Assembly: GCA_030583665.1 (NCBI GenBank)
Contig: CP129469.1
Span: 1,178,001-1,242,000, forward strand
Source of the DNA: Candidatus Jettenia sp. AMX2
GTDB taxonomy: Bacteria; Planctomycetota; Brocadiia; Brocadiales; Brocadiaceae
Length of the DNA stretch: 64,000 bases
Reading direction: 5' to 3'
The notes beneath the pieces are model-generated. The model saw only the letters and a list, made by a program, of their open reading frames with translations, was not told where the DNA came from and ran no database searches. A program made the position numbers and the translations under genes. Of the stretch, positions 372 through 30,425 are shown one piece after another; the first letter of the stretch is position 1, and each line of letters starts with the position of its first letter.

Positions 372-545
372 TATGACAAGTAGTTCCTTTGCATTTTGAA
401 AAAATAAAAAAGATATATTATCGGCAAAGCACCCGATAATTTCATTATATACTCAAATGGCAGTATAATAAGTCACCAGTAAACATATGTATTAGTATCT
501 ACTAATAGTTGTAAAATAAGATGGTTATCTTAGTACTCCTAATTT

Positions 546-797
546 GTGTCAGGGTTGGAAAGGCTCAAAGCATGGGAAAAACCAGTCTTAGTATTTATCA
601 GTCATTCTTCAGAGGACAAAGAGTTATACATTAAACCAATCGTTTCCGAGTTGAATAGCTGTGGTATCGAGGTATGGATAGATAACCAAAGAATATTGCC
701 AGGGTATGACTTGTGGGAATCAATTCGTGAAGGCCTGGATAGGGCAGATATGTATTGCTATTTTTTACAGAACATTCATTGCAGTCTAAATGGGTAG
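546..797 (+). CDS. TIR-domain protein, N-terminal fragment before a frameshift
   Basis: This fragment encodes the first part of a bacterial TIR domain: FISHSSEDKE (strand A), then EVWIDNQRILPGYDLWESIREGL. A GTG at 546 is the likely start, without a convincing ribosome-binding site. After residues DMYCYF the frame runs through a T6 tract (761-766) into unrelated sequence and stops at 797. The domain continues exactly one frame over, in the gene part beginning near 755: reading seven Ts instead of six gives YCYFFTEHSLQSKW, the expected TIR sequence. TIR domains in bacteria are often NAD+-cleaving defence effectors. As written this fragment lacks the WxxxE glutamate and should be inactive alone. 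Confidence 0.75.
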   Translation: MSGLERLKAWEKPVLVFISHSSEDKELYIKPIVSELNSCGIEVWIDNQRILPGYDLWESIREGLDRADMYCYFLQNIHCSLNG

Positions 798-1483
798 ATC
801 AGGAAATTAAGCATATATTAAGGAGGGAAAACTTAAAGAAGGGAAATGGCTTTGGCCTAAATAAAGTAATATCAATATACGATTCTCAAGATACATACAA
901 TGCAATTAACGAACAATACCCTAAGCTTACAGATAAACTGTTTCATTTTATGCCGAGAGACTATGATAAGATCCAGTTGGGACGATTAATCTCTGCAATT
1001 TGGTCAAAGTACTTTTCACTAAATGAATTATTTGTCAAGAATAAGAAACCATTAGGAGTTGATACCTCAACATTTGGACTAACACCAACCGTTAATCCAA
1101 CTTCAGAAACCGATCCCTCCCATCTCAGGGAGAGTCTGTCAAAGTACCTTGAGGGCTATAATGCATTGTCGGAGTTATGGTGGGAACAGGAGAAATACGT
1201 CCAAAACTCCTCTGGTAAGCTATTGGACTGGCAAGCATTTGTGCAGGAAATTGGAGAGAGGTGTTTACTTATTGCGCCAAGTACTTCTGTAGCAGCACCA
1301 TCCGGTCAAGGGGAAAGTAATGCCATGTACGCATGTTTTCCTGACTCGATAATAAAAGATATTGATAATTTTAACAGAGAGATATTGTTCAAATTCAAGG
1401 TACTATTGCATTTAATGGTGAGTATCTACCAGGATATGTTATCATTAGAAGAATCAAGAAAATTAAAGCTGATGAATGACTAA
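755..1483 (+). CDS. TIR-domain protein, C-terminal fragment after the frameshift
   Basis: This is the continuation of the TIR gene in the neighbouring frame. It starts with the end of the TIR domain (FFTEHSLQSKWVDQEIKHIL), including the conserved W-x-x-x-E whose glutamate is catalytic in NAD-hydrolysing TIR proteins. From about residue 100 onward there is a helical region that I do not recognise (motifs SKYLEGYNALSELWWEQ and IKDIDNFNREILFKFKVLL). There is no further stop until 1481-1483. Restoring one T in the 761-766 tract gives a single protein of about 312 residues. Initiation at 755 is not supported by a ribosome-binding site, so this part is translated only if the frame is corrected, by slippage or in a variant cell, or else it is a pseudogene or a sequencing error. 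Confidence 0.7.
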   Translation: MLFFTEHSLQSKWVDQEIKHILRRENLKKGNGFGLNKVISIYDSQDTYNAINEQYPKLTDKLFHFMPRDYDKIQLGRLISAIWSKYFSLNELFVKNKKPLGVDTSTFGLTPTVNPTSETDPSHLRESLSKYLEGYNALSELWWEQEKYVQNSSGKLLDWQAFVQEIGERCLLIAPSTSVAAPSGQGESNAMYACFPDSIIKDIDNFNREILFKFKVLLHLMVSIYQDMLSLEESRKLKLMND

Positions 1484-24317: not shown

Positions 24318-24455
24318 TGAGCACAAAAAAACCAACGAAGATAACTTGATTGTATAGGAATTTTCATTTTAATGAAGCGGGTTTGCGGGGAGGTGTAGTT
24401 ATAAGGTTGGTGATGGTAATATGATACGATAGTGTTTGTCCCAGTTCATGATCAG

Positions 24456-24488
24456 AACACTGTCAGGGTTGAGAACCCTGACAGTGTT
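24456..24488. repeat. perfect 15-bp hairpin
   Basis: AACACTGTCAGGGTT at 24456-24470 and its exact complement at 24474-24488 flank a 3-base GAG loop. No T-run follows, so it is a palindromic repeat rather than a standard terminator. Confidence 0.8.
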
Positions 24489-24546
24489 AATCTCCATTCG
24501 ACCCTACGTGTGGCTACAAACAAAGTCACCGAAGGCCTAATTGTAT

Positions 24547-24720
24547 ATGTATAGGAATTTCAAACTGTTAGTTCCTCCCCCCTGTCTGCGTGCGGTGACG
24601 CACGGGCAGGCTCGATGGGGGAGGTTAGGTGGGTGTGAAAGGAACAATCTGTGATCACCCTCCCTTAACCCCTCCCGTCAAGGGAGGGAAAATGTGTTTT
24701 TAGTCGCCGAAGGCCTAATT
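24547..24720 (+). repeat. dispersed repeat family A, copy 1
   Basis: This copy shares its ends and core with 54984-55186 (inverted) and 57319-57485. Common blocks are ATAGGAATTTCAAACTGTTA at one end, a first hairpin with TTCCTCCCCCCTGTCTGCG, then GAAAGGAACAATCTGTGATC, a second hairpin CCCTCCCTTA/AAGGGAGGG, and GTCGCCGAAGGCCTAATT at the other end. Confidence 0.85.
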
Positions 24721-24738
24721 TATGGGTAAATATGAGGC

Positions 24739-24922
24739 AACCCCGAAGGGGTGAGATGATTATAGCCAATACATAACCATAGATTAACAACCCCGAAGGG
24801 GTGGCATAAAACAACGATAATTCCAAAGGGATAGTATGAAGAATCTGTATTCTCTGTCACCCCTTCGGGGTTTAACCTATGTTTTGTACTTTTACTATAA
24901 TCATAACATCCCTTCGGGATTA
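24739..24922 (+). repeat. dispersed repeat family B, copy 1 (CCCCGAAGGGG palindromes)
   Basis: Several short palindromes AACCCCGAAGGGGT in both orientations, spaced by A/T-rich sequence with TATAATCATAACATCCCTTC near the end. The second copy is at 57049-57210 in the same orientation. Confidence 0.8.
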
Positions 24923-25074
24923 AAAAAGTGGCAACTTATCAAATCCCACCCTAACTTGTCATGGCAGGCGGGTATTCAAGCCAGTAGTTAAGAGTCATTT
25001 TTGTTAAAACAAAAACAGATATTTGTGAAATTATATGTTTCAAGGACATCTGAAATTTTTTATGGAGAAGCCTG

Positions 25075-25416
25075 ATGTCAAACATAACCAAAATACTTGC
25101 CCCTGATGGATCTGAAATTTATATCCAGTACGGAGAGGAAGAAAACGAAAAACTCCGGGCCGTTGGGGTTAGTAAAGAAGATATTTCTGGAAGGACGAAA
25201 AAATTTATGGAAGAGCTGCCCAAGACCATTCGCGGCTATTCAACGATGGTACTGAATGCTGTACAGGAAGGTATAACTGGCCAGATTGCACCCGAAAAAG
25301 TAACACTGGCATTTGGCCTGCAGATTGGGGGTGAGGCAGGTATACCCTTCATCACGAAGGGAACCGCACAGGCTAATGTTACAGTAAACATCGAATGGAA
25401 TTTAAAAAAAGGTTGA
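25075..25416 (+). CDS. trypsin-co-occurring domain 1 (Trypco1) protein
   Basis: A 113-residue single-domain protein resembling the CU044_2847/Trypco1 family: a beta-rich start (EIYIQYGEEE), a central helix (TIRGYSTMVLNAVQEGITG), PEKVTLAFGLQIGGEAGIPFIT, and an ending strand ANVTVNIEWNL. The family is known from comparative genomics to occur beside trypsin-like proteases in NTPase-dependent conflict systems. Here it precedes a trypsin-NACHT gene by 6 bp, exactly that arrangement. The ATG follows ATGGAGAAGCCTG, a reasonable ribosome-binding site. It may be a regulator or the substrate of the neighbouring protease; that is inference. Confidence 0.8.
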   Translation: MSNITKILAPDGSEIYIQYGEEENEKLRAVGVSKEDISGRTKKFMEELPKTIRGYSTMVLNAVQEGITGQIAPEKVTLAFGLQIGGEAGIPFITKGTAQANVTVNIEWNLKKG

Positions 25417-25422
25417 TGATAC

Positions 25423-26868
25423 ATGCCTCATTACGACATCGATACACTACGGGAATCGATGGTAAAGATCCTTCAGGATGATGGACAAACAACATCAGGT
25501 TCAGGTTTTATCATTCGCGAAGATGGATACATCGTCACTTGCCACCATGTCATTTACCAGTTAAAGAAACTCGGGGTAGAATATAAGAATCAGGTATTCG
25601 ATGCAACGTGGTGCGAAGACCTCTCAGATCCGGATGTTGATATTGCTGTCCTGAAAATAGATATTGAAAATGCCAAAACAGTACCGATTATTAAACCCAA
25701 AGAGCTGCAAGGACCAGTTACCGTTTATGGGTTTCCTGTTTCAAAAGAAGAATATTTTCCAAAAGGCTTTGATGTTCCTGCCGGTCAGATACAAAAAAGC
25801 GCATCCGTTAACACGCATGCTACTTACAACACCCTGGAAATTAAGTTTAACAATGCGTGGAACAGGCTTCCTCATAAAGATTCATGCTTCTCTTCTTATC
25901 GAATTCATGAAAAGGTTGATCCTGGCACAAGCGGTGGTCCCGTCCTTGCAGAAAATTTAGATGGGGTGGTAGGAATTGTGCAAAGCAGTAAAACCGGGGA
26001 GACCTATATTATTCGATGGGATAATATTCTCCCAAGCCTGGACAAACTGGGATTGGAGCCAAAGAAAAATGCGATATGCAGGTTCCTGGAAGACATTGAA
26101 AACAGATTCAAGGAAATAAAACTTTTCCACATCCGGCAAAAAATTCTTATGGAAAACCAATATATCCCCATTCAGGTCACCGTTGAGAGAAAATACCGTC
26201 ATGAAATAGAAACGTCATGGGGATATAGTGAGTCAGAGGAAGAATTGAAGCGTGCGTATGCCGTGAAAGGGGAGACAGAAGAATCGCAAAGGACTCAGGT
26301 ACCATGGGAAGATGCAAGGAAAGAGTATCAGAAAATTATGGTGCTTGCTGACCCGGGTATGGGAAAATCGACTCTCCTTCAGATGGAGGCGCTCGAAATT
26401 GCCATAAATGAACGGCAAAGTCTCAGGGAAGAAGGAAAAAACATTGAAGATATCATCGTTCCACTCAATATTAAGCTTTATGATCTGGCAAAGGATACGA
26501 GAGAGGTAGTGGATGTTATCCCGGATTTAGTTTCCCGTGACTACCCGAAAACTTCAAAGGGAATCACCGGTCTTTTAAAGGAAAAGTTGGAAGAAGGGAA
26601 GTGTACCCTGTTGCTGGATGCGCTGGATGAGGTGCCTCTGGAACACAGGAGAGAGCTGGCAGAAAGGCTTAACAGGTTTGCCGGAAATTATGACTGCCCG
26701 GTTATCTGCACCTCAAGAATTGCCGGATATGGCGGCGCTTTTTTGGATGGCGCCAAGGAAGTTGAGATCGTGCCCTTTGCCTGGAACAGACAGAGGATTA
26801 TATTCATACATGGTTTACCAATGCCAGGGATTTTATCAATGATGATTCGGTCTCTGCCACGGGATTAA
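25423..26868 (+). CDS. trypsin-like protease fused to NACHT ATPase, N-terminal fragment
   Basis: The first 450 or so residues of a large receptor-like protein. Residues 1-215 are a trypsin-fold protease with a complete triad: His42 (TCHHVI), Asp73 (DIAVLK) and Ser170 (GTSGGPV). Residues 295-450 start a NACHT STAND-type NTPase with Walker A ADPGMGKST (310-318) and Walker B TLLLDALDEVP. After VPFAW (26773-26784) this frame continues into unrelated sequence to 26868. The NACHT domain continues in the next frame as QTEDYIHTWF from about 26787. Restoring one G in the TGG of 26782-26784 gives WEQTEDYI, the usual NACHT sequence. So this is one broken gene, or one gene with a sequencing or programmed frameshift. 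Confidence 0.85.
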   Translation: MPHYDIDTLRESMVKILQDDGQTTSGSGFIIREDGYIVTCHHVIYQLKKLGVEYKNQVFDATWCEDLSDPDVDIAVLKIDIENAKTVPIIKPKELQGPVTVYGFPVSKEEYFPKGFDVPAGQIQKSASVNTHATYNTLEIKFNNAWNRLPHKDSCFSSYRIHEKVDPGTSGGPVLAENLDGVVGIVQSSKTGETYIIRWDNILPSLDKLGLEPKKNAICRFLEDIENRFKEIKLFHIRQKILMENQYIPIQVTVERKYRHEIETSWGYSESEEELKRAYAVKGETEESQRTQVPWEDARKEYQKIMVLADPGMGKSTLLQMEALEIAINERQSLREEGKNIEDIIVPLNIKLYDLAKDTREVVDVIPDLVSRDYPKTSKGITGLLKEKLEEGKCTLLLDALDEVPLEHRRELAERLNRFAGNYDCPVICTSRIAGYGGAFLDGAKEVEIVPFAWNRQRIIFIHGLPMPGILSMMIRSLPRD

Positions 26869-28025
26869 TGAAAGAGCTGAAAAACAAACCGCAGGTTCGT
26901 GGACTGGCTCAGAATCCTTTACTGTTATCACTTCTTTGCAGCCTGTATCAGGAAAAAGAGATTACCCTGCCCGCACAACGTTGTAAGATCTATGAAAAGG
27001 CAGTAACATACTTGTTGGAAAAATGGACCCGGAACAGGAACCCGCAACCGGATGCATATATTTACGCCAAAATCAGCTTGCTGGAGAGGCTTGCGTATGA
27101 TTTCACCTGTGAGGAAAAAGAGATTTTCACCGTGGGTGAGATTGCTAATAAAATTAGTGGATACAAGAAGCTTGACGAATTCTCTGACGAGTTTAGGGAT
27201 ACCAAACCCTCAGCATTGATTACAGAACTCTCTGAATCAGATGGTATACTTCAAAAACTTGAAAGGGAAGGCGACAGGTATCTTTTTCTCCACAGAACCT
27301 TTCAGGAATATCTTACGGCTTCTTATATCAACAGGGTTATCGAAAAAAAACGGGAAGAAGGTATTGGTAGAGCAAAAAGGCATTTTTGGGATTATGAATG
27401 GCATGAAACCTTAAGCTTGCTTGCCGGCATGATGAGAGACCCTGGCGCCCTGATCCGTGCCCTGATGGAGGAAAAAGATGATATCTTCTCCACCCTGCCA
27501 TTATTAGCAGGAAGGTGTATCGCCGAATGTACCGAATGTAATGTGCCTGATGACCAGCTTATTCATGGCATCATTGATCGTATTTACGGGTTATGGATGA
27601 AATACCCGGGGCTTGGTTTTATTCAAACCTGTGTGGTTTCTCTGGGTCAGAGCAGGGATCACATGATTAAACAATTACAAAAGGCGCTCAAGGACGGGGA
27701 TAGTGATGTGAGAGGGAGAGCTGTGTGGGCCTTAGAGAAGATAGGTGATGCCCGTGCCGTGGGTGCATTGATCCAGGCGCTCAAGGACGGGGATTGTAAT
27801 GTGAGAGGGAGAGCTGTGTGGGCCTTAGAGAAGATAGGTGGTGACCGTGCCGTAGATGCATTGATCGAGGCGCTCAAGGACAAGGATAGTATTGTTAGAG
27901 AGAGAGCTGCGGAGGCCTTAGGGGAAATAGGTGATGCCCGTGCCGTAGATGCATTGATCGAGGCGCTCAAGGACGGGGATTGTAATGTGAGAGAGAGCTG
28001 CGGAGGCGTTAAGGAAGATAGGTGA
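26868..28025 (+). CDS. NACHT-HEAT receptor, middle fragment
   Basis: The second frame of the receptor, open from about 26787, so the ATG at 26868 is probably not a true start. It carries the NACHT helical domains ([48 protein letters not shown]) and then, from 27683, tandem HEAT repeats of 31 residues ([20 protein letters not shown] type). In the fourth repeat the sequence GTGAGAGAGAGCTGC has two bases fewer than its neighbours need, the frame shifts and ends at 28025. Restoring an AG pair joins this part to 28036-28389. NACHT-HEAT proteins are ATP-switched sensors, with the repeats sensing the trigger. Confidence 0.8.
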
Positions 28026-28238
28026 TGCCCGTGCCGTGGGTGCATTGATCGAGGCGCTCAAGGACAAGGATAGTTGGGTTAGATGGAATGCTGCGGTGGC
28101 CTTAGGGGAGATAGGGGATGTCCGTGCCGTGGATGCATTGATCCAGGCGTTCAAGGATGAGGATAGTCGGGCTAGAGAGAGAACTGCGAATGCCTTAGGG
28201 AAGATAGGCACGTTAACAACGTTAGAAAAACTTATCAA
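27683..28238 (+). repeat. six 93-bp tandem repeats encoding HEAT units
   Basis: The GGCG(C/T)TCAAGGA landmark recurs at 27683, 27776, 27869, 27962, 28053 and 28146. Intervals are 93, 93, 93, 91 and 93 bp. The single 91-bp interval is the 2-base loss that breaks the frame. The first units differ from each other at only a handful of positions, so the array expanded or was homogenised recently. Confidence 0.95.
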
Positions 28239-28389
28239 GGATCCTGATCTTAATATTTTTGCTCCTGAAGTTTTTTCTCTTGCCAGATCGCTGGCGGTTC
28301 GATTCAGGAAGGAGAAATCAGATTTTATTCCTGTTTATCCGGAGTTGATTGATAAACATCGTAAACAGGTTTTATTTCATATATGTTAA
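28036..28389 (+). CDS. NACHT-HEAT receptor, C-terminal fragment
   Basis: The last 117 residues of the receptor in the third frame: two more HEAT repeats ([20 protein letters not shown] and [20 protein letters not shown]) and a helical cap ([20 protein letters not shown]). The GTG at 28036 is inside the repeat array and is unlikely to be a real start. With both deletions restored the whole gene 25423-28389 would encode about 989 residues: trypsin, NACHT, six HEAT units, cap. The stop overlaps the following phosphodiesterase gene by 7 bp. Confidence 0.75.
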
Positions 28390-29774
28390 TTAATAAAAAA
28401 AAGGTATTTGTTTTAGGGTTGGATTCGCTGCCACCCGAACTTTTATTTGACCGCTGGATAAATCATTTACCTCATCTAAAGCACCTCATTTCCCATAGTA
28501 TCTATGGCAAAATGAAGAGTACCATTCCTGCCATTACCTGCCCGGCCTGGGTGTCCATGATGACGAGTGCCGATCCCGGCAGATTAGGTTTGTACGGGTT
28601 TAGAAACCGTACCGGCTACGATTACAACGGCCTCTTTTTTGCCAATTCAAAATCAATTCATAGAGATACCGTATGGAATATTTTGTCCAGGGTTGGAAAA
28701 AAAGTAATAGTTATTGGCGTTCCTGTGACCTATCCCCCCCAGCCGGTTAACGGATGCATGGTTACCTGTTTTATGACGCCCGGTTCCAAATACGAATACA
28801 CATACCCTTTGGAATTAAAGTCTGAAATAGAGGAGATATCGGGGGGATATATCTTCGATGTGGGCGAATTCCGGAGTAATAATAAGGATCCCATTTTAAA
28901 GACAATTTATGAGATGACGGAAAAACGATTCAGGCTGGCACGGCATTTTATCCGCTCAAGGGCATGGGATTTTTTTATGATGGTAGAAATGGGGCCCGAC
29001 AGGATACACCATGCTTTCTGGAAATATTTTGACGAGTCACATCCCAAATATGTACCCGGGTCACCCTATCAGGATGCTGTCTTCAATTACTATAAATATC
29101 TTGATACGGAAATTGGTAATATCCTGAATCTTTTAAGTGATGATACCCTGCTTCTCATTGTCTCTGACCATGGGGCAAAAAGAATGATGGGGGGGATCTG
29201 TATTAACGAATGGCTTATACAAAACGGCTATCTGAGATTAATTCAATATCCTGATGAGGTTACACCATTCAATAAGCTTATTGTCGATTGGAAAAATACA
29301 ACTGTCTGGGGTGAAGGCGGATATTACGGGCGGATATTTATGAATGTAAAGAGGCGTGAACCCAATGGAATTATTGCTCCGCAGCATTACGAACATTTCA
29401 GGAATGAACTGATAAGGAAGCTGGAGGACATGAGGGATGAGAATGGCAAGGTTATCAATACACGGGCATTTAAACCGGAAGAGATTTATTCGGAGTGTAA
29501 TGGCATACCTCCCGACCTGATTGTGTATTATGGAGATCTTTTCTGGCGGGCCATTGGTACTGTTGGAAACAGGAAGATCTGGGCAGATGAGAATGATACA
29601 GGCGCTGATGATGCAAATCATTCCCAATATGGCATATTTATTATGAAAAATGGCAAAAATTCCCATGGAGTGCAGCGGGATGATGTTACGATCTATGATG
29701 TTGCCCCTACCATACTAGACTATCTGGATGTTACCGTACCCGGTGATATGGAAGGGAAGATTATTAAACAGTAA
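28383..29774 (+). CDS. alkaline phosphatase-superfamily phosphodiesterase / nucleotide pyrophosphatase
   Basis: A 463-residue protein of the type I phosphodiesterase (NPP-like) branch. Metal and nucleophile landmarks are Asp14 in GLDSLPPE, the nucleophile Thr52 in [23 protein letters not shown], and a late His in ANHSQYG. No signal peptide is seen, so it should be cytoplasmic, where substrates could be nucleotide or nucleotide-sugar phosphodiesters. Its ATG overlaps the end of the NACHT-HEAT gene by 7 bp, suggesting coupled translation with that module. Similar proteins also occur as free-standing genes, so a defence role is unproven. Confidence 0.85.
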
Positions 29775-29780
29775 TCTTTC

Positions 29781-30425
29781 TTATCCGGGGGTGTTCCTGG
29801 TGGTATATGTTGTTTCAACAATGTTTTTGACCTTATTGGTGAATTTGGTAATGAATTTGTCCAATTTTGGAACGAAGACAGGGCTTGCTGCTTTCGCCAA
29901 AAGGGCAAAAAAGGCATTATCGAATTTCAGATGAACCGTTGTTTTCACCTGCTCGGATGGTTCTGTGTTGTTGTCTTTTGTGAGATAGTCGACCTCCAGG
30001 ACAATAAGGCCTGAGAATTTTAGAAAGGTACTGGCATTGCCGTGTCCCTGGTAAATTACCTTATTCGGCTGCCATTCTGCCAGTTGGAATTTACCCGTGA
30101 TGTGTTTTGAGGGAATGTGGATATTGTATTGACTGTTGCCCTTCGCTTCGAGTATTAACTCACCCTTGCTGAAATCTCTTCCATGCTTTGTAAGCTCTTC
30201 CACGTGTTCCATGAAATATTCCAGGGTTTCCCTGTCCGTGTGAATGATAAAGGGTTCCTGAGTCCTTGTTATGGTGCTTTTCCGGATAATATTTTTTACT
30301 TCATCATCTGGAAGGCCTTCTGAATACAGAGACGTCAGCCATGAGAAACTGATCAGAAAAATTAACAGGAAATGGTGGACAGACGGTTTTGTGCGATACA
30401 TAGATCTATTGTATAGGTCTTTCAT
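29781..30425 (-). CDS. exported hypothetical protein
   Basis: A 214-residue protein with an N-terminal hydrophobic export segment (HFLLIFLISFSWLTSLYSEG). The mature part alternates strands and a long C-terminal amphipathic helix (VPKLDKFITKFTNKVKNIVE). The ELILEAKGNSQYNIHIPSK and GFLKFSGLIVLEVDYLTKD-like strands loosely recall lipid-binding START/SRPBCC folds, but I do not recognise a family. It is convergent with the phosphodiesterase (6-bp gap) and downstream of the amylase on the same strand. Confidence 0.6.
   Translation of the reverse strand: MKDLYNRSMYRTKPSVHHFLLIFLISFSWLTSLYSEGLPDDEVKNIIRKSTITRTQEPFIIHTDRETLEYFMEHVEELTKHGRDFSKGELILEAKGNSQYNIHIPSKHITGKFQLAEWQPNKVIYQGHGNASTFLKFSGLIVLEVDYLTKDNNTEPSEQVKTTVHLKFDNAFFALLAKAASPVFVPKLDKFITKFTNKVKNIVETTYTTRNTPG

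What the first reader, a model, noticed from the sequence alone, without database searches (positions are those of the whole stretch)
25075..28389. Trypco1 + trypsin-NACHT-HEAT conflict module
Two adjacent genes encode a small Trypco1 protein and, 6 bp later, a receptor with a complete trypsin triad (His42, Asp73, Ser170), a NACHT ATPase and six HEAT repeats ending in a cap. This matches an architecture class known from comparative genomics of NTPase-dependent conflict systems. A plausible model is that the repeats sense a trigger, the NACHT domain assembles and the protease is activated on Trypco1 or a host protein. The activity has not to my knowledge been shown for this arrangement.
Basis: partly seen in the sequence, partly recalled or inferred. 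Interest (0 to 1): 0.75.

Follow-up and report, generated by a model that had tools for sequence, protein, structure and literature searches.

The report
Broken trypsin-NACHT receptor beside Trypco1 gene
An anammox bacterium carries a two-gene, immune-receptor-like module (a small Trypco1 gene followed by a protease-switch-sensor gene) acquired from elsewhere, but two reading-frame breaks in the receptor gene mean this copy is probably dead, although intact relatives exist in cyanobacteria.

Summary
25075-25416 is Trypco1 (PF19493, E=1.5e-18). Six bases later begins a trypsin-like protease with His42/Asp73/Ser170, then a NACHT-type P-loop ATPase and 5.7 HEAT units of 93 bp. The "receptor", however, is not one open reading frame. 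It is three, separated by frameshifts at about 26779-26784 and about 27990-27996. The Oscillatoria homologue reads uninterrupted across the homologous stretch with 49-55% identity, and Trypco1 lies just upstream of it. The second shift also shows inside the gene: one HEAT unit is 91 bp instead of 93. No other frameshift turned up in about 57 kb of the same genome aligned to relatives, so this copy is most likely a young pseudogene. The genome is anammox (two hydrazine synthase matches). The relatives' orthologous flank lacks the module, whose nearest kin are cyanobacterial, so it was acquired horizontally. In cyanobacteria, 37 of 80 Trypco1 genes have a trypsin gene directly downstream on the same strand, fused to NACHT-HEAT, nSTAND1, VMAP, EAD9 or TIR-AAA. 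Another 24 lie divergently beside a caspase(-nSTAND1) gene. The class is known (Kaur 2020). The mechanism, receptor assembly activating the protease on Trypco1 or a host target, is inferred.

The parts
25075..25416 (+). Trypco1 (trypsin-co-occurring domain 1; NCBI CU044_2847 family), 113 aa, intact
   Evidence: PF19493 E=1.5e-18; NF041216 E=9.5e-22; 59-60% identical to Brasilonema L050, 52% to Oscillatoria L051
25423..26868 (+). Receptor piece A, 481 aa: trypsin-like protease domain (aa 26-185; His42, Asp73, Ser170), linker, NACHT P-loop with Walker A and Walker B; last ~29 codons are out-of-frame tail after the first frameshift
   Evidence: Trypsin_2 E=8.7e-13; motifs; 54.9% identity to L051 aa 8-458
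26779..26784 (+). Frameshift 1: homology to intact relatives jumps frame here
   Evidence: two independent relatives, L051 and L139, break here and nowhere else
26784..28025 (+). Receptor piece B: rest of the NACHT module and the first HEAT repeats (first ATG at 26868)
   Evidence: 49.8% identity to L051 aa 461-862 over 26784-27992; HEAT_2 E=2.2e-27
27990..27996 (+). Frameshift 2, in a GA-rich tract of the fourth HEAT unit
   Evidence: unit spacing 91 bp between 27966 and 28057 where the three preceding spacings are 93 bp; frame jump against L051
27997..28389 (+). Receptor piece C: last HEAT repeats and C-terminal cap (listed ORF 28036-28389, GTG start)
   Evidence: HEAT_2 E=2.3e-15; 48.8% identity to L051 over 27997-28236; cap resembles the end of L139
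27682..28208 (+). Tandem 93-bp HEAT-coding units, 5.7 copies
   Evidence: TRF score 669
24341..24926 (+). Non-coding block with short inverted repeats, present in dozens of copies in the sister genome; likely 5' border of the acquired island
28383..29774 (+). Conserved family-wide phosphodiesterase-type gene (PF01663), outside the module; marks its 3' border
   Evidence: 68-77% DNA identity in nine relatives, all without Trypco1 or trypsin-NACHT upstream in the flank read

Best explanation
This is a horizontally acquired two-gene STAND/NLR-like conflict module (Trypco1 followed by trypsin-NACHT-HEAT) in an anammox planctomycete. Its receptor gene has been broken by two recent frameshifts, so this copy most likely no longer works. 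In intact relatives the most likely mechanism is as follows. The HEAT repeats bind an invader- or damage-derived trigger. The NACHT ATPase assembles into an oligomer. Crowding of the N-terminal trypsin-like domains switches on proteolysis. The first target is the co-encoded Trypco1 protein, which is either released or activated as a pro-effector or removed as a brake, and cell arrest or death follows. SHOWN here (by sequence): domains, catalytic residues, two-gene order, conserved pairing, both frame breaks, absence from the relatives' orthologous flank. INFERRED: sensing by HEAT, oligomerisation, protease activation, Trypco1 as substrate or regulator, defence function, loss of function of this copy. 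My rough sub-probabilities: identity of the module 0.95; this copy non-functional 0.8; protease activated by receptor assembly 0.65; Trypco1 a direct substrate 0.4, a non-cleaved regulator or adaptor 0.4.
For: Domains and triad. Frame breaks against two relatives and within the repeat array. Zero frameshifts in about 57 kb of other own-genome coding DNA aligned to relatives. The three pieces keep 49-55% identity with no further stop, so the damage is recent. Nearest Trypco1s (60%, 52%) are cyanobacterial and both are followed by a trypsin gene. Census: 37 of 80 cyanobacterial Trypco1 genes have trypsin directly downstream on the same strand, mostly within 15 bp. Fused partners are switch, repeat or adaptor domains: NACHT-HEAT, nSTAND1-WD40, nSTAND1-pentapeptide, VMAP, EAD9, TIR-AAA_35. 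Absent from the rest of the family searched. Anammox genome. The protease domain's best PADLOC hits are trypsin domains of LmuA and RT-Protease defence proteins. Experimental parallel: trypsin fused to HamA or Avs activates an upstream-encoded pro-nuclease, and forced dimerisation of the protease suffices for toxicity (PMC12799240).
Against: No Trypco1 protein has been characterised in the papers held. Trypco1 has no recognisable enzyme motif and its low-confidence model matches no solved fold. 19 of 80 Trypco1 genes have neither protease beside them, which fits a pure protease substrate poorly. The frame breaks could in principle be sequencing errors; the raw reads were not available.
Confidence: 0.7

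Rival explanations
1. The frameshifts are assembly or sequencing errors and the organism has an intact, working trypsin-NACHT-HEAT receptor.
For: The second break lies in a GA-rich tract inside near-identical 93-bp repeats, where assembly polishing can fail. The three pieces retain full homology without stop codons.
Against: The first break is not in a homopolymer. No frameshift was found in about 57 kb of other own-genome coding sequence. A second defence-type gene in the window, a TIR protein, also appears broken outside a homopolymer, which suggests decay of defence genes rather than random error.
Confidence: 0.2
2. Trypco1 is not a substrate but a non-cleaved adaptor, inhibitor or chaperone that holds an inducible protease (trypsin or caspase) inactive or recruits it.
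For: Trypco1 sits beside two unrelated protease families with different gene orientation: trypsin downstream on the same strand, caspase divergent. The 2024 DGR paper calls it an adapter (PMC10907252).
Against: In the best-studied analogous pairs (pro-nuclease with trypsin or caspase) the small partner is the cleaved substrate (PMC12799240). Nothing here separates the two readings.
Confidence: 0.4
3. The broken gene still functions: piece A (protease plus truncated ATPase) and the later pieces are made separately, by translational coupling or programmed frameshifting, and act as a split receptor.
For: The stop of ORF A overlaps the ATG at 26868. The catalytic triad and both Walker motifs lie in piece A.
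Against: Intact relatives keep one frame across site 1, so the shift is not a conserved recoding signal. I saw no slippery heptamer by eye. A second break further splits the repeats. The first in-frame ATG of piece B loses about 28 conserved residues of the module.
Confidence: 0.07

Closest known systems
Trypco1-trypsin pairs of the VMAP ternary conflict systems (Kaur et al. 2020, eLife, PMC7159879)
   Same: Trypco1 encoded next to a trypsin-like peptidase fused to a regulatory module; patchy distribution
   Different: Here the trypsin is fused to NACHT-HEAT rather than VMAP, and no MoxR or vWA genes lie alongside; the receptor gene is interrupted
Oscillatoria sp. S11.Bin022 locus L051
   Same: Trypco1 (52%) just upstream of a trypsin-NACHT-HEAT receptor with 49-55% identity; direct homologue
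   Different: Receptor frame uninterrupted to the contig end; the contig ends before the C-terminal cap
Nuclease-protease pairs of Hachiman, AVAST and Lamassu, and caspase-nuclease (canu) loci (PMC12799240)
   Same: [quoted passage not shown] the partner family also pairs with caspases
   Different: Partner is an MBL-fold pro-nuclease with shown proteolytic activation; Trypco1 has no known enzyme motif and no tested function
CARD-NLR systems (LypABC, Lysobacter CARD-NLR; PMC13236601)
   Same: Trypsin-like peptidases operate with NLR-type ATPases in lysis or abortive infection
   Different: CARD domains, TPR repeats and separate NLR gene; no Trypco1 mentioned (text search for the term)

Membership tests
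Trypco1 family (PF19493 / NF041216) | Profile match over the curated cut-off | tested here: met
   67.6 bits against 24.6; 77.5 bits against 23
Trypco1-trypsin conflict pair | Trypsin-like peptidase gene as immediate neighbour of Trypco1 | tested here: met
   6-bp gap, same strand; same arrangement in 37 of 80 cyanobacterial places
Trypsin-like (S1) peptidase | Domain match and His/Asp/Ser triad | tested here: met
   PF13365 E=8.7e-13; H42, D73, S170
NACHT/STAND NTPase | Pfam NACHT profile match | tested here: not met
   No PF05729 match for the window protein or genome; the module's halves lie in different frames
NACHT/STAND NTPase | Walker A and B motifs and homology to proteins annotated NACHT | tested here: met
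   GMGKST and LLLDALDE; 41% identity to a cyanobacterial protein annotated as containing a Nacht domain
HEAT-repeat sensor | Tandem HEAT repeats | tested here: met
VMAP ternary system | VMAP, MoxR ATPase and vWA genes alongside | tested here: not met
   None among the neighbouring ORFs seen at 20-34 kb; the planctomycete locus L008 appears to show this layout
Functional antiphage receptor | Intact open reading frame | tested here: not met
   Two frameshifts
Functional antiphage receptor | Protection against phage | not testable with these tools
   Needs experiment

The most novel reading that the evidence does not exclude
Trypco1 is a general partner of defence proteases, shared by two unrelated protease families (trypsin, co-directional; caspase, divergent) and by several STAND-type receptor classes. 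It would be a common substrate or regulator swapped between receptors, parallel to the pro-nuclease of the nuclease-protease pairs but with an effector or regulatory activity of an unknown kind.
Probability: 0.35. Interest if true: 0.65.

Novelty: new member of a known kind. Interest (0 to 1): 0.38.

Why it matters
The locus adds a horizontally acquired, probably decaying example in an anammox bacterium to a class known mainly from multicellular bacteria. The comparative result matters more. Trypco1 keeps a fixed gene arrangement with trypsin receptors and a different fixed arrangement with caspase receptors, which makes 'what does the protease do to Trypco1?' a direct, two-system test. The case also shows that reading a module from domain order alone can miss that the gene is broken.

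Tried and rejected
Structure of a Trypco1-protease pair: the two genes are in the same frame, so a read-through of the two TGA codons was folded as one chain with 30 rows. The result was poor (mean pLDDT 49, pTM 0.35; protease not modelled) and nothing is concluded from it. Trypco1 alone: 50 rows, pLDDT 67, a beta-beta-helix-beta-beta layout, no match in PDB at E<=0.001, so no fold is claimed. Sequence profile against PDB: nothing significant. A Trypco1-like hit in relative G020 has stops inside and lies within another gene's open frame; rejected as chance. No Trypco1 relative in viral contigs, so phage carriage is not supported. Programmed frameshifting at site 1: no conserved shift in relatives; rejected as unlikely. 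VMAP ternary membership: rejected for lack of VMAP, MoxR and vWA genes nearby. The 80 best genome hits are biased towards Trypco1 sequences like the query, so the separate family-wide cyanobacterial census is used for the proportions. It holds 80 of about 116 places found, the higher-scoring ones first. The frameshift scan covers only about 60 kb and does not detect site 2 by itself because repeats align ambiguously.

Full report
OBSERVATION. ORF listing shows a 113-aa ORF at 25075-25416 and, 6 bp later, an ORF at 25423-26868. The first is Trypco1 (PF19493, E=1.5e-18; NF041216, E=9.5e-22). The second begins with a trypsin-like domain (Trypsin_2, E=8.7e-13) whose triad falls exactly at His42, Asp73 and Ser170, followed by Walker A GMGKST and Walker B LLLDALDE. 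HEAT repeats follow as 5.7 copies of a 93-bp unit. So the domain reading is right and far beyond chance.

THE RECEPTOR IS NOT ONE GENE. Translation in three frames shows that the coding sequence leaves frame 0 near 26780, runs in another frame to about 27990, and returns to frame 0. An uninterrupted homologue in Oscillatoria sp. S11.Bin022 (L051, 932 aa to the contig end) aligns at 54.9% up to 26778, 49.8% from 26784 to 27992 in the shifted frame, and 48.8% from 27997. A second relative, Brasilonema L139, breaks at the same first site when compared with the window and itself reads through. The second break is visible without any relative: HEAT units start at 27687, 27780, 27873 and 27966, each 93 bp apart, but the next starts at 28057, 91 bp later.

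PSEUDOGENE OR ERROR? The first site is not in a homopolymer; the second lies in a GA-rich tract. Relatives' proteins were aligned to 20 regions of the same genome plus the window. They covered about 60 kb, 2.9 kb of it the receptor, and the only frameshift found was receptor site 1, seen with both relatives. At the receptor's density, roughly one per 1.5 kb, dozens would be expected. Similar identity on both sides of the breaks and the lack of further stops point to recent damage. I put 'real and inactivating' at about 0.8. Reads were not available.

ORIGIN. The genome (one contig, 3.46 Mb) holds two hydrazine synthase alpha matches, so it is an anammox bacterium. Trypco1 is absent from the sister species and the other members of the family searched (one chance hit rejected), and was found in 4 of 392 genomes of the phylum, this one included. 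The gene at 28383-29774 is conserved at 68-77% in nine relatives, and none has Trypco1 or the receptor upstream in the flank read. Upstream, 24341-24926 carries repeats present in dozens of copies in the sister genome. Module GC is 0.449 against 0.412 for the window. The nearest Trypco1 proteins are Brasilonema bromeliae (60%) and Oscillatoria (52%). This supports horizontal gain, most simply from the cyanobacterial pool; the donor is not proven.

RELATED SYSTEMS. In the 80 best genome hits for this Trypco1 subfamily, two have trypsin beside them (the two closest), 47 have a caspase-domain gene (45 divergent) and 31 have neither. A family-wide census in cyanobacteria (80 places) gives 37 with a trypsin gene directly downstream on the same strand, 24 with a divergent caspase gene (22 of them caspase-nSTAND1), and 19 with neither. 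Every trypsin neighbour is downstream and co-directional, most within about 15 bp. The trypsin proteins examined carry NACHT-HEAT (L242, Trypco1 4 bp upstream), NACHT (L208, L218), nSTAND1-WD40 (L178), nSTAND1-pentapeptide (L217), VMAP (L174, L186, L188, L195), EAD9 (L175), TIR-AAA_35 (L219, L232), TPR (L222) or an AAA domain (L241, L245). L242 is only distantly similar to the window receptor, so the same architecture occurs in distant branches. A tree of 55 Trypco1 proteins puts the six trypsin-linked ones on one side of a branch (97/88), but some branches are very long and their placement is unsure. Conversely, the NACHT-HEAT chassis of the window occurs in other cyanobacteria with a different N-terminus and, in two cases, a separate caspase-like gene upstream, identified by eye from sequence motifs. 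Effector swapping on a common chassis is therefore likely.

MECHANISM. By family knowledge, STAND/NACHT receptors sense through the repeats, bind ATP and oligomerise. In Hachiman and AVAST, a trypsin-like domain fused to the switch is activated by oligomerisation and cleaves an upstream-encoded pro-nuclease, and the same pro-nuclease family also pairs with caspases (PMC12799240). The Trypco1 arrangement mirrors this: a small upstream partner, trypsin fused to a switch, and a parallel caspase pairing. I therefore favour protease activation by receptor assembly with Trypco1 as the first target or the direct regulator. I cannot separate substrate from regulator. Trypco1 has no enzyme motif I can recognise and no structural match, and orphan copies exist.

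KNOWN OR NEW. Trypco1 was named by Kaur et al. 2020 as co-occurring with trypsin in VMAP systems (PMC7159879), and trypsin-STAND fusions are mentioned there too. In the library held, only that paper and the 2024 DGR paper use the name in this sense. The divergent caspase-nSTAND1 pairing is not described in the passages read, though the DGR paper notes Trypco genes near trypsin- or caspase-like peptidase genes; supplementary files could not be read. I file the locus as a new member of a known kind, and a probably broken one.

Noticed in passing
window 543-1480 (+): A TIR_2 protein gene also appears split by a frameshift near 745-790, not at a homopolymer: a second possibly decaying defence-type gene in the same window.
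   Followed up: partly
L053, L056, L057, L059, L070, L081 and others: In cyanobacteria (and a Desulfococcaceae genome, L070) Trypco1 is very often next to a caspase-nSTAND1-repeat receptor gene, almost always divergent, which its name does not suggest.
   Followed up: yes
L052, L061, L067, L078, L126: In Leptolyngbya/Nodosilinea-type genomes Trypco1 has no protease beside it and keeps a conserved neighbour with a '...AEDAQQILSIAIARQTESGELSRAQLLEIADELGIS...' sequence near a hypB-like gene.
   Followed up: no
window 29774-29784: Most of the relatives read have a P-loop APS-kinase-like gene between the phosphodiesterase gene and the following gene; it is missing here, so the locus has been rearranged on both sides.
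   Followed up: no
G000:C1:383159-383473 and 1143185-1143499: Two hydrazine synthase alpha matches with identical scores, suggesting a duplication.
   Followed up: no
L008 (planctomycete G098): Trypco1 followed by a trypsin-type gene, a MoxR-type ATPase and a further gene, in what looks like the layout of a VMAP ternary system.
   Followed up: no
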